Part shown: piece after piece, positions 7,126 to 58,668 of the stretch
Numbering within the stretch: position 1 is the first letter of the stretch
Layout: each line of letters opens with the position of its first letter
NCBI GenBank assembly: GCA_034190875.2
Contig: CM067343.1
Coordinates: forward strand, 60,895,652-60,959,651
Source: Urechis unicinctus
Taxonomy: Eukaryota > Annelida > Polychaeta > Xenopneusta > Urechidae
Length of the DNA stretch: 64,000 nucleotides
Reading direction: 5' to 3'
Made by a program: the position numbers and the translations under genes
The notes under the pieces: model-generated
Databases searched by the model: none
What the model was told of the DNA's origin: nothing
What the model saw: only the letters and a program-made list of their open reading frames with translations

Positions 7126-10100
7126 CTGTCATGGATTACACAGCATATTTTGATTGCTTAACTTAATCAACTGGAGAACATAACTGCACAACAGGTAGAA
7201 ATCACTGTTACCTGTAAATCAATACCTGGAATGTATACATAATGAAGATGGTATTCAAAAGTTAAAAACTTGTATGTTTCCTACAAAACGAATAAGACTC
7301 ACTGGACGATGAGGCAGTAAGTATGGTGGCTGTTTTCTGACCAGCGCTCGACTGTGTAGGTGCGGAAGTAGTCAATACAGTGACAGCCATGCTCCTCTTT
7401 TCACCAGCCTCCCCGTCACCAGACTTGACCCTCCTCCTGCGCCCCCCCTCACCATCTGACTCAGACTCAGACACACCAGGCGACACATTGCCATCATTCT
7501 TGTTAACCTCCTCCTCAGGTACCAGCTTAGGTCCAACTATAGGTCCCTGCGATGTGGGTGCCACAGGGCTTTTGACAGCTGTACGAACAGCAAAGATTTT
7601 GCCCTGGTTGGTACGGATGTAAACACCTTTGGGAGTTTTGATGACTAGTACACTTTCTCCTGCTGGAATCTTCTGTGGCCCTGAAGTAGAGGATGTGGTA
7701 CCTGGTATGGTAATATCTGTCAAGCACACACAGTTAGACTCATGACATGGAGTTAGTTAAGCGCCAAATCCAGAAATAAACATAGCACTTGGCAGAAGTT
7801 TCGATGACCCTACACATTGTAGTGACAGACCTGTGGTAGTTTTGACTTGCTGCACAGACACCCCAGGTTTAAGAGCAGCTGTCTGTAGACGAGCAACACC
7901 AGGTCGGCCTGGTATCTGACCAGCACTTGTCTGGGGTCGCATGGGAATAGGGGTTGACATCATAGGCCTGACACTGGCTACAGGACGCCCACCTGACATA
8001 GGGTACCTGCCAAATGTACACCAAACACTCAATAAAACAAGCATTTAGTTGATTGTATACATTGTCAGTAATTGACACCAAAGCAATATTTTAACCATTA
8101 AAACCATCCAAAATCATTATTTTTTAGCTAGTTCCTATGAGGCTATTGCCAGATGCCTGCCTCATATTGGTGATGCGTGGGAGCTCTCCAGAGAAGCCCG
8201 GCTTGGGGTAATACGCAGCGTAGGAGGGCCGACTGAACCCCCCACTCATCTTCTTCTCCATCTCATAGCCCTGTTTAGCCAGACGTTTCTCAGACTTGGT
8301 GAGCTTCTGGTCTTTTCTGTCAATCAAGAGGGATTCATGGCTGAATGGCTCCTATAACATAAAACCCACAAAAGTTGTTAAACATCGAGAGATAAAAGAC
8401 AGATGAAAAGCCAATGAAGGCATTATCAGTTATCAGTTTTTTTTGTCAACTGTCAATATACAGTTTACAATGCTACTTTATTTCATATCAAATTCAATCA
8501 TTGGCAGTGACGGGATAGCTCCTTTAGGCATAAGCCCTTGACCAACCCTCATTGTAAAAGCAAACAAACAGCCACTATGGACCAGCATGTTAACAGGTGA
8601 TTTATGGTAGCTTTATATAGTAATCTTTTCATGGGTTTCTAATTTAATGCTAATTTTAACTGATTAATGAAAATGGCTCCAATTTTTTTGTAAAGCAGCT
8701 TTTGGTATCGAATAGTTCTTATTGCATTGGGAATGTGATTTCACAGACCTGACTGTTTGTATAAATATGTTGAATGGCTTTTTTTTTTGTGGTGGGCTTA
8801 TGTGTGTTGATGTTAGCAAGTTGTGTCAGAGTGGCTGCAGGTATTATGTATATAGAGTGCACAGATATTCAATACAGTATTTGTTGGTTGAGTATTTGCC
8901 AAGTGTATATTAGAGCCTGAATTTGTCCTAGAATTTCTGCAGTCACAATCTGTGAAATAGGGATGTGGTGGGTGTGATGTATTTGTAATTGCTTGGATGG
9001 CTTTTTTTTTTTTTGGCAGTCCTTCCAGTCAGAGATATTAGGACAATCTTCGAACTTGCTAACAACAACAAGGTGTCCTCAACCTACTTTAGTGATCCAT
9101 TTATGGTGGATCCTGAGCACTGGCATCAACACAGGATCAGAGGTTTTGTTTTCAAAACACTGTGGGTCAAGTACTGGCATATCTTGGTCCTGTAAAACAT
9201 AAATGTCAGGTTAGTGAATGAAAGCATGGTATATATCATCCACTGTACAGCCAGAATAACAACACAGAACAAAATACAAAGATCTCACCAAAAAATGTCT
9301 ATTTCCATTAGGTTTATTAAATAACCATTGTGTTCAATATATAACCATCAAATCAAGTCATTAACCACTGGTTATATGACAATTAGGTCCAAGCTATTAC
9401 CATAAGGTTCATCATACATTAATCTAGTGCAGTTCTTAACCAATGCATTCTTTATAAAACCACCAGGTTGAGGCTATAACCATTGGGTTCAATGGTCTAT
9501 GACAAGTGTTCATCAAATAACCACCAGGTCCAGTCTTCATACATTGGTTTCACAATATAACCATTCAGTTCACAAAACATAACCATCAGGTCATTACTCA
9601 CCTTGTACTCCAGAAGGATATCAGCTGTTTTCTTGAGCATGTTCTGCGGGTTGAGTTCATCCACCACGCGATCAGACATACCCTGTTTATTGATCTGTCT
9701 ATCATATATTTTCTTCTCAAGTGTGTTATCAGTGACAAGGCGGTAGACGTAGCAGGGCTTTATCTGACCATAGCGGTAGACTCGACAGACAGCTTGACAG
9801 TCGTGACAAGGATTCCAAGAGGCGTCGAAGATGACAACAACTCGGTTAGCACCTACCAGGTTGATACCCAGACAACCAGCCCTGGTACATACATAGACAG
9901 GCAGAATAACCATAGTGAAAGGGTCGGGTGGACTGCAAGAGGCTGGAAGGGGTCAAACACTTAAAGAGAGGACACAGTCAAGGGCTAAGCAGGTTAGAAG
10001 CAAGTTTAATGGAAAAATGCTGTTCTTTTTCCAATGCTGTTTCTAAACTACTCAGTTCCATGCCATTGAGAAACACTAACAACACGTAACTGGGCAGCAG

Positions 10101-13100
10101 CCCAACAACTAGTGTATTTTGCCAAATATGTCGAGCAAGTTACCTTGTAGACAAGAGGAAGAGATGGACATTGCGGTTGTCAGGTCCATTGAACAAGTTA
10201 ATCAGCTTTTCCCTGTCCAGCCCTGATGTACTGCCATCTAGACCTAGAGTATACAATCAGACGAACTTCCACATCATGTCATCATTTCAACGTGAATTTA
10301 TTCTTATCCGATACTATATTTCAGACATCTGCATTTAATATTCGACAAGTATTTTTTTTTATCAAGGCCTGTTACACTGAATTAGCTGCGGTTGTGTGGA
10401 ACTCACGGTAGTAGCTCTTGTTTTTGGCCCACTTGTCCTGTGTGCCTGGTATGTTGGTGCGAGAGAGGAACTCCTCGATCAGGTTTAGTGTGAACAAACT
10501 CTGACTGGTACACACACACACAACATGACAAATCACCACATACCAGCTCCAAAGTCATACGTCAATCTACAAAGCCAATGTTCCCACCCCATCTCCCTTC
10601 ACAATGTACGTTTACATGATTGAACGAAAATAACAGTACAAGTGTTGCCCAGTAAGCTGCCTACCTAAATATGAGGAGCTTATCGCCAATCTCCACACAG
10701 TGCTGTATGATTGAGAGGAGCACTACCAACTTGCCACTGTGTTCGGCTGTCCCCACCTTATAATTCTCTAGAATTCCCTCTGCCTGCACACACAAACAAC
10801 ACAACATTACTAAGTAGAACTCAGCTGGGATTCATTCCAAGAATGGTGAACGCAAAAAAGTCATCATTAGTGAGATTTGTCCTGGGATAATTGCCTTACC
10901 CATTCATAGGTGATGACAGGTTCCTTCTTCTCGATGAAGGGAGTGGGTGTGTCATCGAGCATGCGTGAGGGGGGGCGGGAGCTACATGTGGTGCTCTCGG
11001 ATGGAGTAGGGGAGGAGGTGGTACTCCGGGCCGGGCTCTGTGGCAGCTTCAGCTTACCACCACCACGACCCTTCTTACCCGCCTGACCTTCTATGTCGCC
11101 TTTACCATCGTCAATGTCAAGGTCGTCGTCAGTGATTTTCCTTTGCTGGACGATGTTGTTCAGGACATCAGGATGGTTCCATATCTATAGATGACACAAC
11201 AGATGGGAATATTACCCAAAGAAAACTGTAAATTCAGCATCGTATATAAATACAAAAAGGCCACCTTTTTGGTAGATAAATGCAACACTACTGATTGATC
11301 CGTCTCAGATGGGTTACTAAAGATTGAGTGTTAATTCACAATCATCTGTGTTTAATTAATTCAAATTTGTCAGCCAACCCATAACAGAACGGACCACAAC
11401 CATGGGAGTAGCCAAGGAGCCAAGAAGACTTAGCAGAACACCATGTGATCTCTCACCTTACAGAAGACCGAGAATGCTTTGAGGGGATTGTTACTGGCCC
11501 AGGAAGCTAGACCACCGCCCTCTGGATCATCCATGGTGCCTACAAACTTGTTATAGAGTTGTCTCTGAATGGGTGACATGCGCACCAGGAGTACAAACTC
11601 CTCTTTCGGGGGTAGGGCTGTCTGCAGCACTCCATGTCCCCTCCTACAACAACATCACACATCACCATTACATCTAACTCATACCGCAATAGGTTTTGTC
11701 ATATTAATTCAATTATTGGTAGTCTATCAGATGGCCCCTGTGCACTTGGGTCTGTCAGCATGTAAGCATAAGACATACCTTGGCTCCCACACATTGGGAG
11801 CCGAGGTCATAGGGTGCAACTCTTCACCTAGACAGTCATTAACGAACCTTAACTAAACCTCATCTTTTATAAATAGTTCACCAAGCAAACATAAACAACA
11901 TATTATATGTCTGCTCCATCTCTATCATAGTTCTTGAAACGTCTCCTGGGTCCGGCAAGCTTACCTCTGCACGAAGCCCTCGAGGAGACTGTGTAGCACA
12001 TGAGCTCGATACCTCATCAGCTTAGCATCCTGTGGAGTACTGTCCACACATTGCCCATTCATGATTGGCCGTTCAAACATGTTACAGAACTCAGTCTTGG
12101 TCCCTAGGTAATTAGGCCTAACAAAGTCCACCATACACCAGTACTCTAGCAGGTTGTTCTGTAGTGGGTAGCCTGTTAACACCACTCGCCGTCTGCAATA
12201 GCACACACATGGTACATCAGATCAAATCACACGGACATCCTTCGGCAATATTTTTAAATCACTGATATCATGGTTCATCAGAGGGTAAATTGATGATTTT
12301 TTTTAAATACCGCTTTTCTGTGAGAAATATCTGGTGATTTAATGATGATGAGAAATGATTATTTCATGGATGATGACAAAGTTAATTTCAATGAGCTTTT
12401 GACCAATTGGGTAGCTTGAGGAGCATTTAAAATTACTTCTCAGAGAATGGTCATTTCTAAGGTACAAATTAATGATTAAAAGTCTTCCAATCAGATGGTG
12501 TGCACTTGGGTCTGTCAGCATGGGAGCATAAGACGTGACCTAATCCCACACATTGGGTGATAAGGGTGCAACTCATTTTTGTTTATCAATCACACGGACA
12601 CACATCTGTCTATATTCTTAAAATTCTCTGATTGACAGAAGGCCAAGCAAGTGACATGGTTCATCAGAAGGAAATCACTGATATCCTGGGGCAATTATTT
12701 TTAAATACGATATCTGATTTCTGTGAGAAATGATTATTTCATGGCTGAGCTGGGTAAATTGATGATGGTTAATATAATCATGATAATGATGCTCCTGGTG
12801 ACTAAATGATTAAGATCAATTCCAAATAATAGCTTAGTATTTAAAATTACTTCTAAGGGAATGGTCATTTCTGAGTTACAAATTAATGAGTAAAATGCTA
12901 AGTCTTCCAATCAGATGGCCCCTGTGCACTTGGGTCTGTCAGCATGGGAGCATAAGACGTGACCTTGGCTCCCACACATTGGGTGCTGAGGTCATAGGGT
13001 GCAACTCATCACATGAAAACTTGTTCATCAATCACACGGACACACTTCTATCTATATTTTAAAATTCTCTGATTTATAGATGGCCAAGCAACTGACTTCG

Positions 13101-16100
13101 TGCGGACGTTTTTGAGTGACTGAGAGATGCTGGCATGGCTGTTCTTGATACGATGACCTTCATCGCACACAACAAGGTCGGGGCCTGGTTTCACCAAAGC
13201 TTCCTGAAGAACTACAAATAAACAAACACGGACATAACATCCATCAACACAAACTCAAGAAATACGACAAACAATCTCTTCACAATGTCCAAGTATGCTT
13301 TGTAAATGCATGGATACCTTGAAGAATGTCTCTGTTGCGATCCTCCTCTTCTAGATCAATGATGACTGGCTTGCCAGAGGCTCCTGGCCCTGTTGGCACA
13401 GGGGAAGGGGCGGGGGTATTTTTGCGGGACTTGGACTTGGGTTTAATGAGGACTTTCTTGGAGGTAAGGAGCCGATACATCTCATACCCCATGAGGAGCA
13501 CCCCACCTTCTTTATACCACGTACCTGGTGAAGTCAATCATATATTGTCAATGGAGCAAACACAATAACATTAAACATAATCACTTTTAATTTGTAATTA
13601 TTGTTTTCTAACTACCCTTTCCTAAATCTAAAACAGCAATATTAACAGACAAACATCCATTTGGGATGCATCCACTCACCAACAACTTGCGCCCGTGCCT
13701 TGTTTGTCTTGAAGTTGTCGTTGACCACATGGACATTAAACTTTCGACATTGCACACTGGCCGCCATTTCTGGAGGGAATTTCTCCCTCAGATCTTGTTC
13801 GGTAGGCAGCCACATGTTAAACTCTGACACCCAGTTTTGTAAGGTGTTTACAGGCACAATGGCCAGGACTGACTTGGCGGTGGTGTAACGAAGGAAGACG
13901 TCCATGAATGAGATGAGCTGGAGGGTCTTGCCCAGCCCCATACTGTGAGCCAGGATGCAGCCGAAGCCATTTGAGGTGCTGAAGCGGTCCAGGGATTCAA
14001 CCACGTTATCATAGAGGAAGCGGATACCCCCAATCTGTAATCAGAGCAAGAGGTCATGAAAGGAAACGGTGATACTCAAAGCTTGGCCCTCCCCACCGTA
14101 TACGACTCAAGAGGAGGCGAGAACCACTACACAGCAGAGATACTTATATAGGGTATTAACTCGATTATAAGTTCATTTTGGCACCTCAAATCAAGTTAGA
14201 ATCAGGGTAGGAAATTTTGAGCACATATTGGATATGGGTGGAGCAACCATGAATGTTTTTAAAATGATAAGTCGTTTTATCTAACAAAATTTCTGCAACA
14301 ATTTATGCTTACAATTGCTTCCCCCTGTTCAGCTCACTCTTAGACTCGACTCACCTGGTGAGGTTTGACAGAGCAGGCCAGCTGTGGAGCCAGGAAGACA
14401 TCGACCTCCCCTGTGGGGTGCCCCACGTTAACCAGTACCCTGCCGAGCTCGTCAGGCTGATTGAGGTTGTCATTGGTGTGACTGCCACTGCTTGTTGGGT
14501 CTTCCTCCTCCTCCGACTCCTCAGACACCACATCCTGGGCTGTGGGCAGCATGACAATGTCTTTCTCATCGTCAGAGCTTGAGATCTCTACCACTGGAAG
14601 CATAAAGCAAAGAATTAATGACGTATTGTATGTAATATCTGGGTAGGTTATGGATGAGGATGGCAATGATTATAAAGATGGTGATAAGGATGATAAATAT
14701 GATGATAATGATGGTGATGAATATGGTGATGGTGTGATGGCAATGATGATAAAGATGGTGATGATGGTGACATGGCAACGAAGATGGTGATGAGGATGAT
14801 CAAGATGATGATGGGAAATACCATAATTCACTAAACTGAACCAAATACTGGTAGTTCTAAACCCAGATCTTCTGTTACCCAAATTATAATATCAGTAGCT
14901 ACCATGGTTTACACAAAAAAATAGCACACCACACAAATCTTCTTCATGACGCAGTAGGGTAGCATCCGAAGATACCAGGGAGTGATAAACAATAGAGAAT
15001 ATGAGTAAGTGATGGTATGGACAGGGACCAGATACATGAGGAACACATGAAACATGTCAATGTTATAGGGCTAGAGTTCACAGATTCAAATCTTGCTGAT
15101 ATTGGTTTAGGCTCTTCCCATCCCTTATGTCAGGTTTTATTTCTAATATTCAAACAATTGGTAGGAAAAAAAATTCCACCATATATTTCACCATATACAG
15201 CCATGGCTAGTATAGTGTTACAAGTGACAGATATTCGACAATGGCAGATGTTAAGAAGCCATTAACGTACCAAATTTAGCAATACTATGTATAATATGAG
15301 AACCCTATAAACTGTTTAACACCACTCTAATGAAACACAATGACTGAATCTGAAGCAGAGGTAACTTGAGGCTTGAATGAAACATCAATTGTATTGTCCC
15401 TCCACCTGAAGTCAGAGGGCAACCTTGCTTGGAAATCCCACAATCCAGCCTGATGAGATTGGCCTTATACGTGTAACACTTGTGGTGTAAGACGCTGGGT
15501 AAACCATCAGGATAGTGACTTAAAATAGATCCCTAACTGACAACAGGGCATTCATTAGGAGAGGTGTATTTACTGACATGCACTGAGTGGATGAGTCACC
15601 ATCCATTCTGACCTATATTGGCAGATCGGGAATCCCCAAGAAGGCCTAACAACTCAGACATCGAAGACGGGTTTGACTTACTTTAATGGCAAGTCTTATT
15701 CTGGGGGAGACATTTATACTTGTTATACATAATTCAGATTCACAAATGGTTTTGCGTTAAGTGGGAGATGATCACTTGACCCATCTTGGTATGTAGTGTT
15801 GATTAAATTGAGAGGTAAGTATCTCCACTTGACAAGCCCATTGAGTAACAGCACCTGGTGTAGGTTATCAACAGGATTGAGCATCTTTCCAAGACCGATA
15901 GCAAAACAAGGTCAGGTATTCATATGCAAGGTCAAGTGGAGACAATCAAGACATCAACCTCTTCGTCTTATGTGTTTTGTTATCTTTCTATGTACCTGCC
16001 GTGTCTGGCTTCTCGGATCTCGGACGTCAGACACAGCGAATAGAGCGTATGTGATCAACCAGATATTGAGGTATGAATAAAGATCTCAGGGTCAGTTTTA

Positions 16101-19100
16101 ACTAAGACACGGATATTGGCTAAGCTATCTGCTAAAAAGGCCCAGCTCAGCATTTTAGGCAAAGCGTATCGATTCTGGCAAGCCGCCAGCCTGATTCGCT
16201 ATGCCCAAAATACTGCTGGGGATTCCCCTAGTTTCCACTATCAATACCGGCGCTGCGTCCACCCTGTGGAGGCGTGATATACTTGTGATTTGCAACATCC
16301 TATAGTGTACATGCGTAAGAGTCATCGAACACCAAGCTTTTATGTTTATATCGGAGATATGGCATAACACACCTATGCGGTACGCACGGACAGTTGGACG
16401 CTGATAATTACCACTGAGCGAAGCATTTTATTTCAAAGAAGCTGATACTGGGCGGGTAGCCTGCATTTCGTGCCGGCACTCAACGAAGACTGTCTAGCCA
16501 CGCGCGCGCCCCGGAAACTTACCTCACAATTTAGAGGTAGCTAGAGCGCACTCAGGCAAGCACAACCTCAAACCGACAAGGGTTCCTATATTCGTCATTA
16601 CATGTGACATAGAGGACCGCTTGAGAACCAGCACGACAAAAGGTCATAGTTCAGGCACAAAGTGAAAGTACACACGATATATAACCAGAAGTAACAGTGA
16701 CAATCAGCATTTATATTTTCGGATCGCTGTAAACCACATCGGAACAAAACAGCCTGCTCCACCGAACGCCAACAGCCAGCTCAACGTCGCCATGATCGGG
16801 TACTTTCTGCTGACCACAGTGACGTCACTTATCATAGGTAAATCCAATTGAAATGAGTAGCTGTTGAAATGTCCATCACGTTTGCCCATACCTTATTGAA
16901 AACACGAAGAGTAAGAACAGCGAAGAGTGGTGTTTCTGTTGTAAAAATACTGCTCGTCAAGTGGTCACCGATCTGAGGTAGAGAAAGGTAAGTGTGGGGT
17001 ATAACGACACTCATGTGTTATATGGTGCCATCAAAGGTTTAATAGATAAGATTGACCTGATTAAGCAGCCGCCTTCTACGATAAATGAAAATGGAAAAGA
17101 TGAAAATGGAAACGATTATCCTAGGGCAATTCACTGCCAGTCGATTGACTGAACCTGGTCATTCCAGCCTCTAGTCAAGACGAAATCCGGGCCAGAGTAG
17201 TGTTGCAGAGATGGCTCTCAAAAGGACCTTTCTACTCAACCACCTGGATCCCATTGTCCACAGACTCGAGTCGCAACCCATGGCCAACAGGTTGCCCCCT
17301 ATCAGTCGGGGCACTTAAGTGTATGGAGGTAGTATACATGTGCCTCGTGATGGGGTATGTTTTTTCGGCATCTGGACTTGTACGACGGGTTTTGTTGGGC
17401 CTCCTACGACGGGTATGTTTTTCAGCTGCAATCTGTACGACGGGTATTTGGGGTGCTTAGTATAGTACACATATTGAGTAGCATTCTTGTCGACCAAACT
17501 TCCAGCAGCAGAGAAAACCTGTTCACTAGGAACGGATGTGGAAGTTGTGTGGGACACAGCAGGCTGAGCGCTGCCAATGCAACAGATCAACGACATTGTT
17601 CCAAGAAGAATTGTGTTGATGTGTGGTGACTTTACTGTCACAAGAATAACCCCAACAGTATGTTTTCTATAGAATGATCCCACCTACAAGTCAGCAATCA
17701 AAGAAATGAAATCATCATAGGACGCAAGCATGGGCCATCGTGCTAGGGTACTGGAGTAGAGGCTTAGTTGCATTGTCTATCAGTAATGCAATATGCGTAA
17801 CGGTAAACCGGTAAACCTGGATGTAATCCGATACTTGACTGGTGTGGTAGTTACCGGCCACAGCTCTTCTCTATTATATCTACTAACATGTGATAGACAA
17901 AGTTTCCATGGTGAATGACAAACTTATCAAATCAGTACAGAAATGAATCTGTACGAACAGATGTTCATTATGAGAACCCTCCATGTGTTGATATGAGATA
18001 ATAATGACTCTCCTATACTGCGACAGTCAATGTGATAAGCATGTCACTAGCTGCAATCTCTGTACTAATACATTGTTCAAAATTGTCTGTGTTCTGTACC
18101 GAGTGAGTGAGTGAGTGAGTGAGTGAGTGAGTGAGTGAGTGAGTGAGTGAGTGAGTAAACGGCACACACCAACACGTATGTGTTATATGTTCTTTACCAG
18201 GTGCGTGCGGCAGCAGTCAGTGGTATGTGAACAATACCATCGGTCATGATACAGAAAACTGTGGTGTGTCTCAGAAAATCCCCTGTCGCACCATACGCTA
18301 TACCGTACCCCAGACCCAACTTAATGACGTCATCAACATCGATACCAGTCGAGGACCCTACCAAGATGAAGGCTCTAACTCCACATACGTCCACGTCAAC
18401 CACAGCTTGACCCTGCGAGCGATAGGTGCGGGGCATGCCCGGATTACTTGTCGACCAGGACAGTCTAAAATCTTCCTGGTGTCAACAAGCAACTTGACAA
18501 ACACCAAGACCGTTATGACGCTTCACAACGTAGACATCAATCAGTGCAAGTTCGCGTCCGAGTCTGACACGGGTGTCATAATGGTCCACAACGCACGCTT
18601 AGTCATAGTGGAATGTGCGATGAGTGACAACTTTCTGCTAGTACATCACCCCATGCTAACCATGTCTGGATGCCACCTCGTTGAAGTAGAAATCCTTAAT
18701 TCTACCATGACCAGGAACCAGAAATTACAAAGGCCATTCCACCCTGGAGTTCTGGTGGAGGGGTGTGGTCAAGTTGGCATTCAGGTGATCAACACCACAC
18801 TAAAAGGCTCCCCACTCCGACTGACAGCCGACAGAAACCTGAACGTTATGATGAGAAATGTATCCATGGAGGGCAGTTACACAGGGGGAAGTTCTTCAGT
18901 TGATATTACAATGGCCAACGAAACCAACATCATCTCTATCACCAACTGTACAGTTACAGGACACAAATACATACGAGATAGCCCAGTAAACCTGGCGTTG
19001 ACACAGAAACCAAGCAAACTGGTCACAGTGCACTTGACCAATGTCCGATTCACAAATAACTCTAACATTAAGAGCCATGGAGCAGCACTTACACTCATTT

Positions 19101-22100
19101 CCCACTTCAACCAACCCACACCACTCATTATCAATGCCATTCTCAAGCAATGTGAATTCAGCCGTAATTCAGCTTTAGATGGGTACTATGGAGGCGCTGT
19201 GTATCTGAAAAATGTGGCCAATCTCACCATTTATCAGTGTATGTTTACCAATAACACAGCTTCTATGGGAGGGGCTGTGTATGCAGAGGATGCGAGGGGC
19301 GTAGCAATCCTGAACTCCAGTATAGCAGGCAACCGGGTGGTATCAGAAGGTCACACTATGACAATGGGAGGGGGGATATTTGCCTACAGAGCATCAATCA
19401 CAGCCAGAAATACATCCTTCATCAACAACAAGGTTTCCAGCAGAGGCAGTCATATCTATGGCACTGATCTTACAACAATCACCCTGCTCAACTGCAACTT
19501 AACTCAAGAGAACCTGCTCACCGACGGGTGGCTGGCATACATGATCTATGTGGGGGGAACACAGAAAGATAACCTACCACTCAAAGCAGGGTTAACAATG
19601 GATGGCAATATCCTCTCAGCTTCAGGAAGTTTCTCCAGCTATCCCTTTTTGTACAGTGGCATTCGTACCAAATTAGGGTCCAACATGTACAAATGCCCCT
19701 CAGGTCATCATATCAACTATACTAGTATTCAGCCATTGGTTAGAGGGCCCTACAGCTATGAACAGCTGGCTGCGTTTTGTTCAGCATGCCCAGCTGGTGA
19801 ATTCAGTTTGAAGAAGCATGTGTGGAATGGAACGCTGGACAAAAAAACACTGCCAGATTTTAAGAGTTTCTGCAGCCCGTGTCCGAGTCATGCTGAATGC
19901 GTGCACGGCCAGATATGGCCTCACTATAACTACTGGCTGCACACCAATAACACACCACAAGAAAACAAGAGTGCCAACGATGTCTTAGTCTACTTGTGTT
20001 CTCATGAGGAATGCAGCGGCAACCAGCCATATGATTCAGGAAACAGTTGTGCCTCTCTGAGAAAGGGACGTTTGTGCAGCTCTTGTTTGGATGGGTATAT
20101 CTACAGTATGTCAAAGCACAGCTGTGTCATTAAAGACACTTGTAATGAGCAGTACACAATCTATATAGCCATAGCTGGCTTCTTCTGTGTCTACGTGCTA
20201 CTCATCCTGTTCATGCTCAAGCTCTGGAAGATGGAGTTAATGAACCAATCCAACCATCATTCACCAACACCCCCAACAAGTGACACCCCTGACCTTATTA
20301 CTGTCATCATCCACAGCAATCACGATCTCCAAGAAGACAGCGATGTTACAGAGTCACTGGCAGATGTCGCAGATGAAACGCCTTCGAGACCAGACCCTAT
20401 GGAAACATCCTTGCCGACCAAAAAGAGCCGGTTGTCAGTTCCTGCTATTGGTTTGCTGGCATGCCTATACATCCAGATCGCACCCTTGGTTTACACCCCT
20501 CTGTCCATCCCACAGCTCGTATTCAGGGTTGTCATTGGAGTCTATGAGTTTTTCAGTTTCCAGCTGATGTACGAGGCCCTGCCAAACGTGTGTGAGTTTG
20601 AGTCAATGAATGGCTTGAGTCGATGGGTCCTTGGCCTTGCCACTCCAATTGCATTGCTTCTCATCCTGGCTCTGTTCTCATGTGTTTGCATGGCCTACAA
20701 CAAATCTATGTCTAGGAGAGGCAGTGGTGCAGTGGATTCAGAGGGAAGAGGTCACATTAGGGCCTCTTCAGCTCCCCACTATATGAGTGCTGCTTTCACA
20801 TGGCTTGTATTTGCTTGTTACATCCCCATGTTATGCTCAGCATGTAATCTCTTGCACTGTCGACCCTATAACAATGGATTCATCATTAATGTGGAGAAGA
20901 ACATGGCGTGTCCCACTCCCTGGCAAATCCCTGTTCTCGTATTCATTCTGGTTTGTTTGGCACCTTTGCCAGTGGCGCTAGCTCTAGCTAGCAATGCACT
21001 CCATCAAAACAAATCTGGCAAGTCGTTGATCCTGGTGGTGACACTCCCACTGGTATATGTAATCTGGTACTGTGTGAACAAGTGTAAGTCCCCAGCAGAG
21101 CATGTTCCATCCTCGGAGCCACTTGTACCAGCTTCTGGTCACCTTGACTATGACTCGACCTCTAACCCAAACAAGTACAGCATGATTTTCCACCTTCTTA
21201 TCCTGAAGCCTTTCAACACCTACAGAAAAGCAGGCACCCTTGCTAAAACCTGTGGCGGAGAACCTCTAACACCCGTCAACGGACTTGCCATACTCTTGAT
21301 CAAGTGTATGACTCTGACCTGCTTTGGGGTATGTCTGGGTCATTTGCCAATACTGAAAGCTTTCATCATCACCATCCTTTCCCTCCTTTTCCTCGTACGC
21401 CATCTGACCACCGATAAACCAATGGGTCACGGGACGCAGCAGGCAGTCACCCTGGGTCTGTCCCTCATCACCATTCTCTCCTTCCTTAACATCTATTGCT
21501 CCACACTCTACGAATACAGCTACCACGAAGACACTGGGCTCTTCGCTAACCTACGCATCTTTTGTGAAGTGGTATATGTGATTGCCATGTTGGGGGCAGC
21601 AGCTGTTATTGCCTGTGTGGTCCTTGTCACACTGATGCTGTGGGGAACTTACAAGTCATTCATGAGGTGCATTAGTCCAACACCACCACGTCCACGTCAC
21701 TCAGAAACTTGAAGTACATTTATATATTGTGCTTAGCAATAGTTCTACCCAGAGAATCATTGCTGGATACTTACTTATGACTATGTGGACTCCCAAAAAC
21801 ATATATAAAGCAGCTCATCTGATGTCACTAATGTTTTCATTTTCTTTTGTACCTATTGATACCATTATTATTGAGTATGATAATAAATATGTTGAATGTG
21901 TCTTTGGGTGTGCAACAATATGCGTTAGTTAACCTGGGCAAATGTAGACCATACCGATACAGCCATGACTTGTGAAACATATATGTTGTCTTGTAACAAA
22001 CATGCTTAGTACAACAAGGAAAAGACTTTTTACCTTCAGGTTTTTTGGTGACTATCTTGGGAAGAATAGTGATTTTCTCCGGGGTCATGGAGCTATCCTC

Positions 22101-25043
22101 ATCTTCTTCTTCTTCTACTTCTTCATCTACAAAACAACCCACTATCGTGTAGGAAATTCACAACCACAATACATGATTGACACCAAAGTAAACTCCACAT
22201 CACTAAAAACATTTGAAGCTTTTATCTGCTAGATAACATAGCCCAGACCCGAGCAGACATTATTCTTATTTGAGGCATTGGCTTAATAAGTAACAACCAC
22301 TGTTTAAATACCTCTCCTTAACAAATGCAAGGAAACCCCAATTCTTCACATATTGATGTAACAATTATATTCAGTGTAGTGAGTCATTAGGCACTTGATT
22401 CATTTTCGGTGGAAAATTGGTAAATAGGCTGCGAAAATTTCTGGGCATTTTAAGATTGAAGTTAAACATTCAGCATGATTCAATTTGCAGACCAAACAAA
22501 CCAGATATAACTTGGTTCACTGCAAGTGAAGATAATTATTTCATGCCGATGAGCAATGAAGTCAGTTTCCAATTAAGACTTGGAATACAGACACAACGGA
22601 CACGACACTCACCATCCAGCAGAGACTTGAGCTGTAGATTCTGTATGGTCTCCAAGGCCTCAGCTTGTTCAGCCTGTCGCTGTTGACGCTGAAGGTCGCG
22701 CTGACGACGGAGCTCTGCTGCCTGCTGCTGCAACTTCTCCAAAAGCCTCATCTTTCTCTCCATCTCCTCACGCTGGGCCGACTTAGTCTCGGACTCCAAT
22801 GTGTCATCAGTCAGGATTTTACTGCATGTGCACAAGAGAAGAGCCATGCAAGTAATTGAATGGAAATCAGTATGTCAATAACGATTAGTGAACAGATGGC
22901 CAGCTCATAAATATGAAGCTTGTAGGTTAATCCATGAACTAATTGCAGTTATGCTGAGTTATAGATGAATTTTTGATGACGTGGTGGAATTTATCAACAT
23001 TGAAAACAGTGTCTAAACTTTTTTTCAATGTAAGTACGTAAATATATAGTGACCTGGACCATTAAATACACACGCAAATCTTTCGTATTATTGCTTAAGA
23101 TCTGCCAGCTTTTAGCTGTGGATGTATAGCATCACATATTGTCTCTTGTATGGTTTTGTAATAGACGTTCCGTGTAAGAAGGGGGACAGTTTCAGGTGTA
23201 CTGGTGCAGTGGCTATTTACCTGGTCATTCAATATGTGACACAGCTGATTTACTGTGTTGATTCATGCGAAGATTCGAATTAAACAAAACAATTCTCGGT
23301 ATTGATGTGATGTTTTGTCTATGAAAAAAATAAAATTTGTTCATTTGCTATATGAAAGGAGTCTGCATCAGTCTGAGTACTGTGAGCCCTGACATAGCGC
23401 ACAATCTGTACTGTCATAAGATCCAGTAAGTGACAGATATAGATAAGACGTTTGGTGTGCTTCAATAGCATCTGCATCAGAACTGTGACATCTTAGAAAA
23501 ATCAGGTGTGAAACAAATAAATGCAGAAACACAAGTGACCATCTGGTTGTGAATGAGTCTTGCAAAATGGAAGTGAGGAAGCTGGCTTATAGGGCTACAA
23601 AGTGTGACTTTGCAGCACTGATAACCGTCTTTACTGGCTCCTTTTTCACTGTAACATTCTAGTCATGTCTTGGAGGCAATAACTCAAACGTACATCAGGG
23701 CTCTATATTAGTCAGATTCTTTATTGGCCAGGCGGGCCTGTAACCTTGAAATTCTACCGGCCCTACAAATTTTATACCGGCCCTATTTTTTCAGTTATAA
23801 ATACAGTGCTCTCTGAGCTTTTTCATCCTCTCCAAATTTGCGCTTCTTAGGCAACGATGGTTTAGTACCGCGAACATAACTTCACATAGACAATTGCATA
23901 CTGTTAAAAAATTTCATGCCGTTATATTGGCTTGCTTACGGACGACTTGGAAGACAACTCGCAAGAAACGCAAAACGAAAATATGGCAAGTTGTGCACGC
24001 ATGACGTTACGTCAGTCGTACAACTGCAATAAAGCGCACTGCGATTCCAAAGACGCGAGAGAAGTCACCAAGAAAGAAAACAAGGCAAGGGTGATGTTAC
24101 GTCTTTCTGTCGCGTCATACACAGCAGATAAGCCAGTCACAGTCAAATATTATTAGCGCAAGAACTGTTGACTTGTTTACTTTTAATGTTGCATGAAGTT
24201 TGTTTTGTTGCAGTTATTATCATTCTACATAATCAATGAATTCAAATAAAAATGCCTTAACGCGATGGAAAAGCGGTATTTACAAAATTTGTCAATAGGT
24301 AAGAAATGAGGAGTCGGGTTGATTTGTTGTTGCCAAGCAACCGTTCAACTTATCCAGGTCAGTTGGTGCATGTTGTATTTAAATGCGTGAAGCTGCCATT
24401 AGATAGATTGGGAGTGAGTGGGGTGGGCTGTTGTCTTACCTGTTGAACGTTTACGCTCCAAAATTTAATACCGACTGCCGCCAGCTGATCACTGATCTAT
24501 GTTTACAGACGGGAAGCTTTTTATTTGTTTGTCGAGTTTATGGTTCAATCGGCGCTTAATCACGCAAGCCCTGCTGCTGTTGTATTAAACCTAGGCACAA
24601 GGTGTACGCGCAGAACAAAAAATCTACCCTTGATACCATTGGTGGGCGGGCGGATGCTAATTTCGAGCCCTGCACATGGTTATTATGAAATTATGAGATG
24701 GCTGGGTCCACAATACACAGATCATTCATCAGTTAGAAACGTCTTTAAAGACAAAATACAAGGCATCAGAAGTCCTTATCTTGTAAAGCAATGGTACATG
24801 GCCCCCCACCCCTGTTACTAGAGCTAATCTGCGGAACTTGGGGCCAGATGGGATTATGACAACATCACTTTGTAGCCCTATAAGGTAAATAAAGGGACTA
24901 AATTACGCATCTGCAAATGTGCGATGCTGGGGGTTTGGTTCGCACGCTATTTTGGTCTATCAGCTCTATTAAAACACTTGTTTATATTGAAAGTCACAGC
25001 ACGGAAGTTGTGAATTTAGGGAGATGCACAGCCTTATCATTTT

Positions 25044-28000: not shown

Positions 28001-31000
28001 TTTGAAACCCCCTTTCACAAACAGCGCTAGAGGCAGGTAAAGTTAAAAATATATCAAAAATCTGTGAAATGTGCGGTGCGTACCGCGCTAAACGTCACAA
28101 CTCGCATATGTATTGTTAAATCAGTAGTGCGTTAAAAATACGTGCCACGAAACTCCTGCAACAAGTTTGACCTTACATCACTGTCATGACGCTAGCTATT
28201 TATCGAGACGATGCAAACTACGACACGTAACAAGTTCATCTGTTATCGATTCATCGTGTACTGGTAGAATAAAGCAACTTGCGGTTAAACCGTACATGAC
28301 TAAGTGAGTCTTAATTACTAGCAGTGAGAGAACTTCACACACACGAAACTGCCGCATGGATCAGTGCTGTACGGTTACTGATTATTCTGTCTTACACGCT
28401 CGGCTGCACATCGAAAGACGCTAAAACTTAGTCTTCAAGGCTTCAGTGTTTGCTCGAGATGACTCGCGATCGGCGAATTAATTTACATGTCCGGTCGGAC
28501 AAGTGCTTGGGACTTTTCACTTGTCCCACAAGCAGAACCACCTGTCCCGGACAGGCGGACAACCGTTAATGTCTAGCCCTGGATGAACAAATTGTTAGTA
28601 TCAGGTCAAACAAATACCAAGCTCTCTTTCTCTAGCATACGATTCACTCGGGACCAGCTCAAACTGCACAGTCATATCGAACCAAGTACGGGACCGGCAG
28701 TAATAAAATCTGAAGTTGTTCTGTTGGGCTACCCATCATATATCGACATGCGTGAATTTTATCGCTGATGAACTGCGCTTATCTTGGGCTGTATTTATAA
28801 AGAATCTTAATTGGAGTTGTTGCAACTTGAATCTGCGATCTCAGCCTTGTCCGCGATTTCAGATCATATTCACTTTTTTAATGAATATGACTGACTCTAT
28901 GAACAACTGATCTAAAGTTTGTTGACACATGCGTACTTTATTGTAGCATGCGCTGACAGAAAATGGAGAAAAACGTTTTAAGCATGCTTTTGATGTTTGG
29001 CAATGTCGCCAGAAAGTAATTAACCCAGAGAGAGTATTAAAATTGACTCGGGTGCGTAATTAGGCGAATTCAACTCGCCCGAAAAACGTTTTCATTCGCC
29101 ATTGACAGGCGGGTAACCGTTAGTTTCCACCCCTGCAATAGGCTATTAAACACTGCAGCTTTTGAGTGCTATTTCCTGAAAACAAGTTCTTCTGTAGAAG
29201 CTAGTTCCAAGGTGCATGAACTTCTAGTGCTTAGCAATATGAGGGTATGTTCCACTTAATCTCAGTCTCCACTCGAAGCATCATAATGTCGAACACTAGT
29301 TTCATGATACACATATCACAATGCTGGTGCACATCTACAAACTTGTACAAACATTTCTGCTCCCCTTCAAAACTTTGCGAATACCATATTTTGTCATTGC
29401 ACTGTTGAGAGTAGCAGGATATGTAATGTGGAGGAACTGTGTTGAATTGTATTTGGTAAATGTTATAATTCAATCACACAATGGAACTGACATCTCCATG
29501 GTCACCATGGATGACTGGCCATGTCATATTTTGCTTCTCAATCTTACTTATCACCTAATATGATTCAGATTGAACTGTTAAATATACATGGGGTTGTGAG
29601 TCCATTAGAATTCTCAGATGTAGTTCACCCTGCAAACAATTTGTTCAAAAAAATAACTAAGCAGTTACCTTCATCGGGTTCTGTTTGCTTCAGAGCACTG
29701 TTTTTTGTCTGCAAGGGTGCACTCAGATCGGCCTCCATCTTGACATCACCCATGGACGAGTTAACAAGATCTGCAAACTCGTCATCGGAGGGTGGGCGTT
29801 CATCAGCAAGACAATCCAATGGCCAGCTGTCATCATCTCCGCCAAAGCCTTTCAAATTGTCATGGTCATCTCCATGTGATGGCATTGTTCCTTTGGCACC
29901 ACCTTCAGGTTTCCCAGCATTTGGACCACCAGAACTCTGGTTTAAGTTATCATAAGCAGGAAGCAAATCAGAGCAAACATCAGAACTGTAGTCTTTTGAA
30001 CTGTCTAAGAGCTGTGGCTCGCTGGATGGAGACTTGGCCTCACCCATAGGGTCGCTCAAGTCTAATTCAGACTCTAGAGTCAGAATTGGCATGGGGAGAT
30101 CACAGTGGCTAGGACTTGAGGAGGAACGATCCAGCTCCCTCCCTTGCAATGCACTCAAAGACTCAGAATGCTGCTCTAGCAATGGTTCCTTAATGCCAGG
30201 CTTGTCTATTTCTGGAAGCGCATCCTCCAGTAATTCAGCAAGACTAGATCTAGATTTGTCAGCAGAATCAGTTTTTTTTAGATCAGGTAAAGAAGTTGCA
30301 CTAAGTACAGGAGGGGAGCTAGGCCTCTCACCATCTCTTTGATCACCAGCACAAACACTGACCTCAGAAGTGGATCCCTCCATAGACACAGAGAGGCAGC
30401 TGTCATCAGTATGCTTCAACCTACTCAGTGGTTTATTGTCCTCTGTGGTTTCCGATGACAATATCATGTTGGAATAATTATCGCCATTAGCACCATTATC
30501 ACTTCTCAACTGGTTGTCTAAATAAGCATCTGAGCTAGCATTGCTGGATTTATTTTCTTCTTCAATATCCTCATCTTCTTCTTCACTGGTTTCTTCACTC
30601 TGTCCATCTTCTTCTTCTTCCTCGTCGTCGTCATCATCATCATCATCATCATCACTCTCTTCAGAGTCCCCATCAGTGTCACTGACATCCGAGTCTTCAT
30701 CATCCTTTCCATTGTCAGAGGCAGGCTTGAATTCAGGGTCCTGGGTGATTTCTGGTGGCTCTATAGTATCATGACTGTGGTCTGAGCACTGCAAATTGCT
30801 ATTGTCCTCAGGAGGGTCATTCGTAAATGGTTTACTAGTTTCACTTGCAGTTTTGTTGGGCTCTGTTGGAGCTTCTGACACATTAACTTTGGACATTGCC
30901 AAATTTCTATCCTGTTGAGCTTGTTGAGACTCTCGTGTGCTAAGGGCTGTGAAAAACAAAAGAGGCAGGATTCCTTACTGTATACTGCATACAACAATTC

Positions 31001-31919
31001 TGTTATTACAATATGATCAAAATAATTAATATTCCACTGGTCATGGAACCTACAATCATAATATAACCTAAAATTTAATTATGTATATAGAGCTTAAAGA
31101 GGAACTGAGTCCTGGTGTTGCATTTAATATAAACTCCTGTAAATTTGGATTTGCAAAATAATTCTTCTGACTTAAAGTTTAGATTTAAATTCAACTATGA
31201 TTATTGCCATGAAGTAACTGTGACATCACTGATTGGCACAGTGGGCATAATCAAAAGGTGAGGAAATTTACATCTCCAATCTAAGGTCAGTATAGAATTG
31301 AATTAATTGCACATGTAGACTCACCAGAAAGCATTTTCGCCCTTGCAAGGGCCTGTTGGACAATAGCTTCCAGCTTATCGGATTTAGGTTGAGTCGCACC
31401 ACTAGCATTTTCACTGGGATTCAGAGAAACATTGCTCCTGGGTGAATGTCTCTCAGCCTCAGATTTATTGGCATTACTTATAAAATGCTGTCGGTTTTGG
31501 AAGAAGGTCTGTCCTGCTGAAACAGGAACACCGGGTGATCTACCTGCTGTGAGAGGAAGCGAAATCTGTTCTTTTTGGGCATAGGGTAATGAGGCACCAA
31601 GAATATTGTAGTTCATGTTCATATATCCTTCTGACGGACTGTCATCTTCATCCTCTCCCTCCTCGTCAGAGGAATAGCCTTCCTCACTAGCACTGTCTCT
31701 GGAACTGGCCATTCTAGAAGTACTGGCCTCATATCCCCCAGCCAGGGGATTTTCATCCTTCCCGTTTCTGGATGATTCAACATCTGACGATTTTCTTACG
31801 TGGCTTTCTTGGGTCGAGTCATTTACAAAAGAGGCAAGTTGTTCAAAAGGACTTGGTTGAGCTTGAACAGGCTGGTCCCCAGATCCTATTGGACCAGGAC
31901 TTCTAGCTGCTACCGACAT
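4541..31919 (-). CDS. RAD54L2: RAD54L2 / ARIP4 SNF2-family helicase, whole coding region
   Basis: Nuclear SNF2-type DNA translocase (androgen receptor-interacting protein 4). Coding exons, 5' to 3' on the minus strand: 31919-31325, 30946-29669, 25448-25115, 22821-22613, 22126-22034, 14593-14355, 14034-13680, 13524-13318, 13211-13097, 12192-11965, 11643-11457, 11184-10900, 10783-10665, 10504-10407, 10243-10144, 9881-9602, 9189-9088, 8351-8161, 8006-7831, 7716-7303, 7125-4541. Every junction keeps frame; the sum is 8,190 nt, giving 2,729 residues plus stop. Key motifs: FERKNIR joined to KILTDD (human RRNIRKLL), AHSMGLGKT (Walker A), CDEGHRIKN (DEGH box), VCRVYRYGQ (motif VI) and [18 protein letters not shown]. 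The vertebrate protein is about half as long; the extra length is disordered N- and C-terminal sequence. One junction (8161/8160) needs a GC donor. An acceptor just upstream of the ATG (31938) indicates a non-coding first exon. Confidence 0.95.
9290..9600. repeat. Degenerate tandem repeat in RAD54L2 intron
   Basis: About a dozen diverged units of roughly 25 bp, each with an AACCAT or ACCA core followed by AGGTTCA or similar (for example ATAACCATTGGGTTCA). They fill nearly the whole intron between the exons at 9602-9881 and 9088-9189 and stop next to the splice donor at 9601. Confidence 0.7.
9602..14593 (-). CDS. RAD54L2: RAD54L2 helicase core exons
   Basis: Eleven exons encode the two RecA-like lobes (residues of about 837-1574). 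Lobe 1 has [37 protein letters not shown] (motif I), [13 protein letters not shown] (Ia), [31 protein letters not shown] (II, DEGH) and [18 protein letters not shown] (III). The linker includes [19 protein letters not shown]. Lobe 2 has [18 protein letters not shown] (IV), [36 protein letters not shown] (V) and [14 protein letters not shown] (VI). All catalytic motifs are intact, so the protein should be an active ATPase. VEISSSDDE and VIIDLEEED look like SUMO-interacting motifs; human ARIP4 has similar acidic motifs at matching places. Confidence 0.95.
11721..11829. repeat. Hairpin-forming dispersed repeat, copy 1
   Basis: A segment of about 110 bp in the RAD54L2 intron between 11644 and 11964. 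It shares long identical stretches (TGCACTTGGGTCTGTCAGCA, CCCACACATTGGG) with copies at 12481-12575 and 12901-13009. Its centre folds back on itself: ACCTTGGCTCCC and GGGAGCCGAGGT around a 7-nt loop. Confidence 0.75.
12222..13096. repeat. Tandem duplication of about 0.4 kb inside a RAD54L2 intron
   Basis: Two successive units share ordered landmarks: AATCACACGGACA (12222 region, 12586, 13028), TGGTTCATCAGA, ATTATTTCATGG and the hairpin repeat (12481-12575 and 12901-13009). The unit reaches the splice donor of the exon at 13097-13211: GCCAAGCAACTGAC beside the exon is matched by GCCAAGCAAGTGAC in the inner copy (about 12640). The intron therefore grew by duplication starting at its own 5' end. 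Confidence 0.7.
14650..14815. repeat. GAT/GGT-rich low-complexity tract
   Basis: Degenerate repeats of GATGATGGT type in a RAD54L2 intron, just upstream (minus strand) of the exon at 14355-14593. Open frames across it in several phases are composition artefacts. Confidence 0.7.
14816..16677. other. Intron sequence upstream of the nested gene
   Basis: No coding exon recognised on either strand. It belongs to the RAD54L2 intron 22033-14594 and contains the 5' flank of the nested plus-strand gene. The only structure I can see is a long hairpin at 16141-16220. Confidence 0.5.
16141..16220. repeat. Imperfect inverted repeat (about 80-nt hairpin)
   Basis: The left arm (16141-16179) and right arm (16185-16220) pair over almost their whole length with a loop of about 5 nt; the inner arms are GGCAAAGCGTATCGATTCTGGC and GCCAGCCTGATTCGCTATGCC. 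Size and shape match a pre-miRNA or a very small fold-back element. No coding function. Confidence 0.55.
16678..16684 (+). promoter_or_regulatory. TATA box candidate of the nested gene
   Basis: TATATAA lies 108 bp before the ATG of the signal-peptide exon at 16792. This spacing fits transcription starting near 16710 with a short 5' UTR. Confidence 0.45.
16792..21712 (+). CDS. Nested gene: secreted-start beta-helix polytopic membrane protein (unnamed family)
   Basis: Two coding exons, 16792-16837 and 18201-21712, joined in phase 1 across a 1,363-bp GT-AG intron, give about 1,185 residues. Exon 1 encodes a signal peptide ([16 protein letters not shown], then ACGSS). Residues of about 25-480 resemble right-handed parallel beta-helix repeats with many N-glycosylation sites. 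They include [33 protein letters not shown] and FINNKV, the GGA[IVY]/FxxN pattern of chlamydial Pmp-type helices. A Cys-rich stalk follows ([32 protein letters not shown]; about 540-660). Then come about ten hydrophobic segments from [17 protein letters not shown] (about 669) to [20 protein letters not shown], with a Ser/Asp-rich loop after the first. It lies antisense inside a RAD54L2 intron. I cannot name the family; a cell-surface sensor or adhesion role is only an inference. Confidence 0.85.
17459..17605 (-). mobile_element. hAT transposase remnant (dimerisation-domain fragment)
   Basis: Within an open frame at 17683-17315 the stretch [20 protein letters not shown] matches the C-terminal dimerisation motif of Ac/ZBED-like hAT transposases (usual form: P-S-E-R-V-F-S-A-A-G). 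The surrounding frame has no other transposase features, so this is a small fossil piece in the intron of the nested gene. Confidence 0.6.
18101..18156. repeat. (GAGT)14 microsatellite
   Basis: Fourteen perfect GAGT units, 44 bp before the splice acceptor of the nested gene's large exon. Confidence 0.97.
21882..21887 (+). terminator. Poly(A) signal of the nested gene
   Basis: AATAAA 170 bp after the stop codon. A transcript ending just beyond it would stop about 130 bp short of the antisense RAD54L2 exon at 22034-22126. Confidence 0.6.
22034..31919 (-). CDS. RAD54L2: RAD54L2 N-terminal charged exons
   Basis: Five coding exons (31919-31325, 30946-29669, 25448-25115, 22821-22613, 22126-22034) encode about 836 residues before the helicase. 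The start [12 protein letters not shown] follows an acceptor (31938/31939), so a 5' UTR intron is likely. Exon 2 is strongly acidic, with runs of Asp and Glu ([14 protein letters not shown]). Exon 3 is strongly basic ([20 protein letters not shown]) and ends FERKNIR. Exon 4 encodes a Gln/Arg-rich coiled coil ([20 protein letters not shown]). Exon 5 is acidic again ([13 protein letters not shown]). The NIR-K-L junction and the following ERK/ERR-type helix match human ARIP4, which ties these distant exons to the gene. Confidence 0.88.
22822..23695. other. RAD54L2 intron segment without recognised features
   Basis: AT-rich sequence between the exon at 22613-22821 and the hAT-like element starting at 23696. 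I see no exon, repeat or RNA gene in it. Confidence 0.4.
23696..24672. mobile_element. Non-autonomous hAT-like DNA element
   Basis: The ends form a terminal inverted repeat: CAGGGCTCTATATTAG on the left and CAGGGCTCGAAATTAG read inward from the right (14 of 16 match). CAGGG ends are typical of hAT elements. The 977-bp interior has no transposase motif. The 8-bp flanks (ACGTACAT and CACATGGT) do not form a clear target-site duplication, so the copy is old or the ends are slightly misplaced. Confidence 0.6.
25046..25073. repeat. (TG)14 microsatellite
   Basis: Perfect TG dinucleotide run, 42 bp downstream (in the intron) of the donor of RAD54L2 exon 25115-25448. Confidence 0.97.
26050..26700 (+). 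mobile_element. Decayed hAT (ZNF862/KIAA1586-like) transposase copy
   Basis: The left part encodes a 72-residue frame with [20 protein letters not shown] and FNEKWM, followed after a frame change by WLVFDHE and MHCKQCRA. This is the order seen in TTF-type zinc-finger transposases. At 26502-26673 comes the dimerisation region [23 protein letters not shown], an in-frame TGA where the family has Trp, then [15 protein letters not shown]. The catalytic middle is missing. It lies in the RAD54L2 intron 29668-25449. Confidence 0.7.
27366..28581 (-). mobile_element. Internally deleted hAT element with terminal repeats
   Basis: The inverted ends CAGGGGTAGACACTAAC (left) and CAGGGCTAGACATTAAC (right, read inward) match at 15 of 17 positions. 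The flanks GATGACAT and GATGAACA look like a worn 8-bp target-site duplication, as expected for hAT. On the minus strand an open frame (about 28060-27804) keeps a transposase C-terminus: [20 protein letters not shown], then [17 protein letters not shown]. The rest of the transposase is absent. Sub-terminal GGGACAAGT motifs repeat several times near both ends. Confidence 0.8.
29119..29135 (-). mobile_element. Orphan hAT-type terminal repeat
   Basis: Read on the minus strand the sequence begins CAGGGGTGGAAACTAAC and continues GGTTACCCGCC. It is closely similar to the right end of the element at 27366-28581 (CAGGGCTAGACATTAACGG). No partner end was found within about 550 bp upstream, so this is probably one end of a truncated copy. 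Confidence 0.45.
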
Positions 31920-31937
31920 GGATAAGGATGTTCAAAC

Positions 31938-48956: not shown

Positions 48957-58668
<9,712 letters not shown>

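What the first reader, a model, noticed from the sequence alone, without database searches (positions are those of the whole stretch)
16792..21712. Unnamed animal membrane protein: signal peptide + Pmp-like beta-helix + Cys-rich stalk + about ten membrane segments
An open frame of about 1,160 codons in one exon joins a GGA[IVY]/FxxN beta-helix ectodomain, best known from chlamydial Pmp and other adhesins, to a Cys-rich stalk and a large polytopic membrane domain. This is not a standard animal receptor class. A surface beta-helix on a multi-pass base suggests a glycan- or microbe-binding sensor or adhesion receptor. Function is inference; the domain order is seen.
Basis: partly seen in the sequence, partly recalled or inferred. 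Interest (0 to 1): 0.75.

Follow-up and report, generated by a model that had tools for sequence, protein, structure and literature searches.

The report
Animal beta-helix-headed multi-pass membrane protein
A stretch of animal DNA carries a two-exon gene for an uncharacterised surface protein whose outer part looks like a Pmp-type beta-helix on a cysteine-rich stalk and whose base probably crosses the membrane nine to eleven times; it may be a receptor or adhesion protein, and its function is untested.

Summary
Exon 1 (16792-16837, hydrophobic leader), a GT-AG intron and exon 2 (18201-21712) give 1185 residues. The ectodomain alone matches Pfam Beta_helix (46 bits, cut-off 25.9) and Chlam_PMP (26.3, cut-off 20.6). 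A Cys-rich stalk just misses DUF7630 (25.5 bits at best, cut-off 27). Eleven hydrophobic segments follow; a charge score of my own prefers nine crossings, N-out and C-in. The membrane part given whole matched no Pfam family. Minus-strand RAD54L2-like exons lie beside it and probably around it, which argues against bacterial contamination.

No relative of the membrane part was found, but the collections searched are not animal ones. Single-sequence AlphaFold models were weak. Precedents are in print: almost 200 non-bacterial PF02415 proteins (PMC11166332) and Pmp-like N-termini on Dictyostelium GrlP, GrlQ and GrlR (PMC1885808). I call it a new variant of a known kind. Best reading: a cell-surface receptor or adhesion protein that binds glycan, matrix or microbial ligands with its beta-helix. 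The domain order is well supported; the function is inference (0.45).

The parts
16792..16837 (+). Exon 1: start codon and hydrophobic leader, a likely signal peptide ([15 protein letters not shown] and the first base of Gly16)
   Evidence: Translation and GT directly after 16837; Kyte-Doolittle 1.72
16838..18200 (+). Intron, 1363 nt, phase 1, GT-AG; holds a GTGA tetranucleotide repeat about 40 nt before the acceptor
   Evidence: inferred from sequence, no RNA
18201..21712 (+). Exon 2: the rest of the protein (to residue 1185) and stop
18527..19504 (+). Beta-helix ectodomain, about 12 rungs read by eye (residues 125-450); Pfam match at residues 295-453
   Evidence: Beta_helix 5.6e-12, Chlam_PMP 6.7e-6. 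Rung-like motif, chosen after looking: 22 in residues 17-512, shuffle mean 6.2, max 15, 0 of 5000 as many; three of the 22 lie before residue 125 and some rungs count twice
19694..20143 (+). Cys-rich stalk (residues 514-663, 13 Cys)
   Evidence: Cys positions; DUF7630 at 20039-20125, 25.5 bits against cut-off 27 for a 46-aa piece, 19.3 for 160 aa; 0 of 9 Cys-fixed 160-aa shuffles matched it
20156..21640 (+). Polytopic membrane domain (residues 668-1162), 11 hydrophobic segments, 9 to 11 crossings
   Evidence: Hydropathy, helix pattern in a low-confidence model, charge-based topology
20225..20431 (+). Acidic loop (residues 691-759) between segments 1 and 2, predicted cytosolic
   Evidence: 5 K+R and 13 D+E in 69 residues
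21167..21250 (+). Further predicted helix (residues 1005-1032), by eye basic and amphipathic, before the last four membrane segments
   Evidence: DSSP of model m5f60ec470672, pLDDT under 50 there; no hydrophobic moment computed
21882..21887 (+). AATAAA, possible polyadenylation signal, 170 nt after the stop

Best explanation
An apparently intact animal gene for a plasma-membrane protein. Shown by sequence: hydrophobic leader, beta-helix ectodomain with Pmp-type FxxN/GGA rungs, Cys-rich stalk, multi-pass base, two exons with splice signals. Inferred: the glycosylated beta-helix stands off the cell surface and binds an extended ligand (glycan, matrix or microbial surface) through loops that leave its rungs; the disulphide-rich stalk couples binding to the membrane base, which passes a signal inside, perhaps through the acidic loop after the first segment and the Ser/Arg-rich loop after the fourth (RRGS and RASSAP look like kinase or 14-3-3 type sites, by recall of those motifs).
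For: Beta-helix and Pmp-repeat profiles over cut-off for the ectodomain. The only outside sequence match found is a hypothetical protein of a Methanosphaera plasmid, 35% over residues 276-420 of the exon-2 query, 2e-4, with Chlam_PMP and Big_3_5 over cut-off, which I read as adhesin-like. Weak model whose listed PDB neighbours are mostly tailspikes, pectate lyases, pectin methylesterases and the like; that many of these bind carbohydrate is general knowledge. 18 of 21 N-glycosylation sequons lie in the ectodomain and stalk. N-out, C-in topology preferred when N-out is assumed. Precedent: Dictyostelium GrlP, Q and R (PMC1885808, passages). Pmp motifs are described as buried elements that present exposed loops (PMC10715098, passages).
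Against: No ligand, expression, localisation or signalling data. The membrane domain given whole matched no Pfam family and no PDB sequence beyond one hit at E 1.3. Single-sequence models are poor (mean pLDDT 43.4 and 43.7; pTM 0.47 and 0.30) and no fold match reaches E 0.001. On the whole frame Chlam_PMP falls just under its cut-off. No animal relatives could be compared, so conservation of any part is unknown.
Confidence: 0.45

Rival explanations
1. A mechanically or ligand-gated ion channel of a TRP-like kind, with the beta-helix and stalk as its lever.
For: Large ectodomain, nine crossings preferred by charge, N-out and C-in, an extra helix before the last four segments. That fungal TRP-like proteins have a similar outline is recall.
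Against: No TRP, PKD or other channel family matched the membrane part; structure search of the membrane model uninformative.
Confidence: 0.2
2. A purely adhesive or matrix-anchoring protein with no signalling role.
For: Pmp-type and beta-helix domains are reported in adhesin-like proteins (PMC11532034 and PMC10715098, passages); the one outside match looks like an adhesin.
Against: A base of nine to eleven segments is far more than an anchor needs; predicted cytosolic loops carry Ser and charged clusters. Both are inference.
Confidence: 0.18
3. A class-C-like GPCR, as reported for Dictyostelium GrlP, Q and R.
For: Same reported pairing of Pmp-like N-terminus and multi-pass base; Cys-rich stalk before the membrane part.
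Against: No 7tm_3 match and more than seven membrane segments. The Grl sequences themselves were not compared.
Confidence: 0.1
4. A membrane-bound polysaccharide lyase, hydrolase or transporter.
For: Fold neighbours of the weak model include pectate lyases and chondroitinase B.
Against: No lyase or glycoside hydrolase family matched the ectodomain; what matched are beta-helix and Pmp repeats. Active-site residues were not tested.
Confidence: 0.05

Closest known systems
Chlamydial polymorphic membrane proteins (Pmp; PF02415, TIGR01376)
   Same: FxxN and GGA-type rungs in a beta-helix ahead of a membrane part
   Different: Few canonical repeats; no autotransporter barrel match; alpha-helical multi-pass base; gene with an intron
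Dictyostelium GrlP, GrlQ, GrlR (family 3 GPCRs with Pmp-like N-termini, PMC1885808)
   Same: Reported Pmp-like N-terminus on a multi-pass base in a eukaryote
   Different: Their base is described as family 3 GPCR and the paper's table gives no signal peptide; here no 7tm_3 match, about 9 to 11 segments and a leader. Sequences not compared
Archaeal adhesin-like proteins (Methanosphaera, Methanobrevibacter; PMC11532034)
   Same: Pmp-type beta-helix; 35% identity over residues 276-420 of the query to WP_323737584.1, annotated hypothetical
   Different: That protein has Big_3_5; no stalk or multi-pass base matched ours
Trichomonas Pmp-like proteins (cited in PMC10715098)
   Same: Pmp motifs in a eukaryote
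   Different: Their membrane part was not examined here
DUF7630 (PF24633)
   Same: Cys motif of the stalk, 25.5 bits for a 46-residue piece
   Different: Below the curated cut-off of 27; function unknown

Membership tests
Right-handed beta-helix (PF13229) | Profile score over the curated cut-off | tested here: met
   46.0 bits for the ectodomain, 40.9 for the whole frame, cut-off 25.9
Right-handed beta-helix (PF13229) | Parallel beta-helix in a confident structure | tested here: inconclusive
   Strand pattern, block pLDDT mostly 50-77 in residues 190-440 of the piece, mean 43.4; 177 PDB matches at E <= 10, none at E <= 0.001, the 50 listed mostly beta-helices by title and recall
Pmp-type repeat (PF02415 / TIGR01376) | FxxN and GGA rungs over cut-off | tested here: met
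   26.3 bits against 20.6 for the ectodomain, but 20.0 for the whole frame; POMP_repeat 15.1 against 15, E 0.016. A marginal pass
Chlamydial Pmp autotransporters | C-terminal autotransporter beta-barrel | tested here: not met
   No barrel family in the Pfam scans; hydrophobic helices instead
DUF7630 (PF24633) | Profile score over cut-off 27 | tested here: inconclusive
   14.9 to 25.5 bits depending on the stretch given; the best piece was cut after seeing the match; 0 of 9 Cys-fixed 160-aa shuffles matched it
Class C GPCR (7tm_3) | 7tm_3 profile match and seven segments | tested here: not met
   No 7tm_3 match (the scan's filters drop most hits above about E 0.1); 9 to 11 segments
TRP or polycystin channels | TRP or PKD_channel profile match | tested here: not met
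   No such match (same limit); structure comparison uninformative
Animal G8/PbH1 proteins (fibrocystin, CEMIP, TMEM2) | G8 domain beside the beta-helix | tested here: not met
   No G8 match; that these named proteins carry G8 is recall
Any animal orthologue group | Same architecture in other animals | not testable with these tools
   Collections are viral, prokaryotic, phage, plasmid; no own genome held

The most novel reading that the evidence does not exclude
The protein is an animal member of an ancient, unnamed class of eukaryotic surface receptors that set a Pmp-type beta-helix on a Cys-rich DUF7630-like stalk and a common nine-crossing base unrelated to GPCRs and known channels, used to sense microbes or environmental polymers.
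Probability: 0.3. Interest if true: 0.65.

Novelty: new variant of a known kind. Interest (0 to 1): 0.42.

Why it matters
If the base proves to be its own fold family, animals have a surface receptor class that I did not find described, with an ectodomain of the kind microbes use as adhesins. That would give a concrete candidate for how some animals read glycans or microbes, and a clear test of whether Pmp-type beta-helices on multi-pass bases go back to early eukaryotes.

Tried and rejected
Relatives. The search for related loci with single proteins looks for six exact 8-residue peptides, so it reaches close relatives only. Viral contigs: whole exon-2 protein, 3 stretches, none confirmed; stalk, 3, none confirmed; membrane part, no stretch. 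Genome contigs: whole protein, 9, none confirmed; membrane part, 10, none confirmed. A DNA pattern for a recalled stalk consensus gave 0 matches in viral contigs. tblastn: no match in phages; in plasmids two versions of one Methanosphaera plasmid record. None of these collections is meant to hold animals, so the negatives say little.

Families. DUF7630 in one plasmid record and 14 control genomes rang nowhere, uninformative. Weak hits taken as chance: on the stalk, MSC 0.011 (15.6 bits, cut-off 29.7) and TTC3_DZIP3_dom 1.2, EGF_LMN_ATRN 0.046, phrog_10071 0.066; on the membrane part, Csx18 0.043 (13.7 bits, cut-off 50), phrog_37470 0.75, and on its sub-pieces WBP-1 0.75, DUF805 0.26 and Ribophorin_II_C 0.62. 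Two of the nine shuffled stalks also drew chance hits (DUF2946 0.11, ADD_ATRX 0.67). PDB by sequence: none for the whole frame to E 1 or the ectodomain to E 10; membrane part one hit at 1.3; stalk 7 hits, best 1jjr at 0.0045 over 27 residues, taken as chance.

Rejected. Bacterial contamination: splice signals, AATAAA and neighbouring RAD54L2-like exons. Chance open frame. Tandem copies: other tblastn hits in the window only at E 4.2 or worse. Internal duplication of the membrane part: apart from the shared overlap, best E 0.42. A listed abstract warns that AlphaFold 2 can give unrealistic beta-solenoids for repeat proteins (PMC11795689, search listing only); the case here rests on the profiles.

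Papers. All 10 searches used. I saw only listed titles and starts of abstracts, and several lists were capped (20 of 96,737; 20 of 485; 20 of 22; 30 of 12,539; 25 of 292; 15 of 38). Among those listed I saw no animal protein of this architecture. 'Outer membrane protein pmp20' and DUF7630 gave 0 papers. A beta-helix in an animal protein did appear: an Oikopleura house protein legend lists G8 and PbH1 (PMC3390340, one passage).
Full report
Gene model. The coordinates given are right. ATG at 16792 opens a 46-nt exon that encodes a hydrophobic leader. A GT-AG intron of 1363 nt follows, and exon 2 runs from 18201 to the stop ending at 21712; the spliced product has 1185 residues. AATAAA lies at 21882. 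First-order Markov windows of 64 kb had longest open frames of at most 245 codons (60 windows, window composition) and 277 (60 windows, exon-2 composition), against 1185 stop to stop in the window. The splice junction was not tested with RNA.

Surroundings. On the minus strand, a recalled human RAD54L2 sequence matches pieces from 14492 down to 8205 (12 tblastn pieces at E <= 1; best 61% over 138 residues, E 1e-46; another 85% over 78). Two further minus-strand stretches, near 22050-22130 and within 22536-22850, look by eye like earlier exons of that gene; tblastn did not report them, so nesting of our gene antisense in a RAD54L2 intron is likely, not proved. A Hakai zinc finger lies in the frame 45476-46897. 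That these are animal genes is general knowledge. No whole genome was held, and I did not establish the species.

Ectodomain. Given alone it matches Beta_helix (5.6e-12, 46 bits) and Chlam_PMP (6.7e-6, 26.3 bits), both over cut-off; in the whole frame Beta_helix scores 40.9 and Chlam_PMP 20.0, the latter just under 20.6. POMP_repeat scores 15.1 against 15 at E 0.016. About twelve rungs can be read by eye from residue 125 to 450. A rung-like motif chosen after looking occurs 22 times in residues 17-512, shuffle mean 6.2, maximum 15, none of 5000 as many; some of the 22 lie outside the rungs or count a rung twice. Two earlier motif tests, also set after looking, were reached in fractions 0.0022 (GGA plus hydrophobic, 2 seen) and 0.0038 (a loosened FxxN, 5 seen) of 5000 shuffles. 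The one outside match is residues 276-420 of the exon-2 query to a hypothetical protein of a Methanosphaera plasmid, 35% identity, E 2e-4, which has Big_3_5 and Chlam_PMP over cut-off; the other families shown for it were under theirs (25 of 35 shown).

Stalk. Residues 514-663 hold 13 cysteines. A 46-residue piece, cut after the match was seen, scores 25.5 bits for DUF7630 (E 1.5e-5), under the cut-off of 27; longer stretches score 14.9 to 19.3. None of nine 160-residue shuffles with cysteines fixed matched DUF7630 at E <= 1; the comparable real value is 19.3 bits, E 0.0013. I call this a probable but sub-threshold match.

Membrane part. Hydropathy finds eleven segments in residues 665-1170. 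A brute-force score of my own, with the N-terminus assumed outside, the first segment kept and up to three dropped, prefers nine crossings without the third and fifth segments and the C-terminus inside (16.9; next 15.2) over eleven crossings (10.0); its weights are arbitrary. Given whole, the domain matched no Pfam family with the limit at E 10 (the scan's filters drop most hits above about 0.1); sub-pieces gave only chance-level hits, and the PDB by sequence one hit at E 1.3.

Structures. Two single-sequence AlphaFold jobs gave mean pLDDT 43.4 and 43.7 and pTM 0.47 and 0.30. In the first, residues about 190-440 of the piece carry a strand pattern at block pLDDT of mostly 50-77, dipping to 40-45 in places. 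Of its 177 PDB matches at E <= 10 none reaches 0.001 (best E 0.031, phage CBA120 tailspike 3); the 50 listed are mostly tailspikes, pectate lyases, pectin methylesterases and other beta-helices, judged by title and recall, with others such as LGR4 and a plant immune complex. In BFVD, 371 matches, none at 0.001; the 50 listed include many tailspikes and pectate-lyase-like proteins, and also collagen-like, E1B-55K and unnamed proteins. The second model shows helices at all eleven hydrophobic segments (the sixth split in two) plus a helix at 1005-1032; its 77 PDB matches were at E 1.1 or worse and uninformative.

Literature. Passages only were read. PMC11166332: 443 of 1448 PF02415 proteins are chlamydial and almost 200 are non-bacterial. 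PMC10715098: buried FxxN/GGA rungs that present loops, with similar motifs in Trichomonas, Methanobrevibacter and Phycisphaerae. PMC11532034: beta-helices and a few Pmp repeats in methanogen adhesin-like proteins, and the remark that the fold is rare in eukaryotes. PMC1885808: Pmp-like regions in the N-termini of Dictyostelium GrlP, Q and R. PMC12716839, on choanoflagellate GPCRs: 'pectin lyase' 0 times. PMC8078820, PMC12419801 and PMC3390340 added nothing decisive. So neither Pmp repeats in eukaryotes nor their pairing with a multi-pass base is new; an animal case with this base did not appear in the listings I saw, several of them capped.

Verdict. The architecture is well supported by sequence and the gene is very probably an animal's. 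It works most likely as a surface receptor or adhesion protein, with ligand binding by the beta-helix, coupling by the stalk, and an unknown signal or transport step at the base; all of that is inference from anatomy. The collections at hand could not show whether the family is widespread. Interest 0.42: the base is unassigned and the head is striking, held down by the known precedents and the lack of functional evidence.

Noticed in passing
11723-11834 and 12905-13019, minus strand: Two SNORD67-like box C/D snoRNAs over the Rfam gathering score (42.4 and 41.6 bits, cut-off 35), lying between RAD54L2-like pieces, so probably intronic.
   Followed up: no
8205-14492, minus strand, possibly to 22850: RAD54L2-like gene on the opposite strand, probably hosting the finding's gene in one of its introns.
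   Followed up: partly
4541-7135, minus strand: Open frame of 864 codons, Pro/Ser-rich, no Pfam match at E 0.01; by position perhaps the end of the RAD54L2-like gene.
   Followed up: no
45473-46897, minus strand: Frame with a Hakai C2H2 zinc finger (PF18408, 1.5e-16) and a long Pro/Gln-rich tail.
   Followed up: no
58174-58668, plus strand: Frame with a sub-threshold ubiquitin hydrolase match (UCH, 18.3 bits against 23.9), perhaps the end of a USP gene.
   Followed up: no
29625-30974 and 31287-31931, minus strand: Two open frames of 449 and 214 codons, acidic and Ser-rich, with no Pfam match at E 0.01.
   Followed up: no
18101-18157: GTGA tetranucleotide repeat about 40 nt upstream of the exon-2 acceptor.
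   Followed up: no
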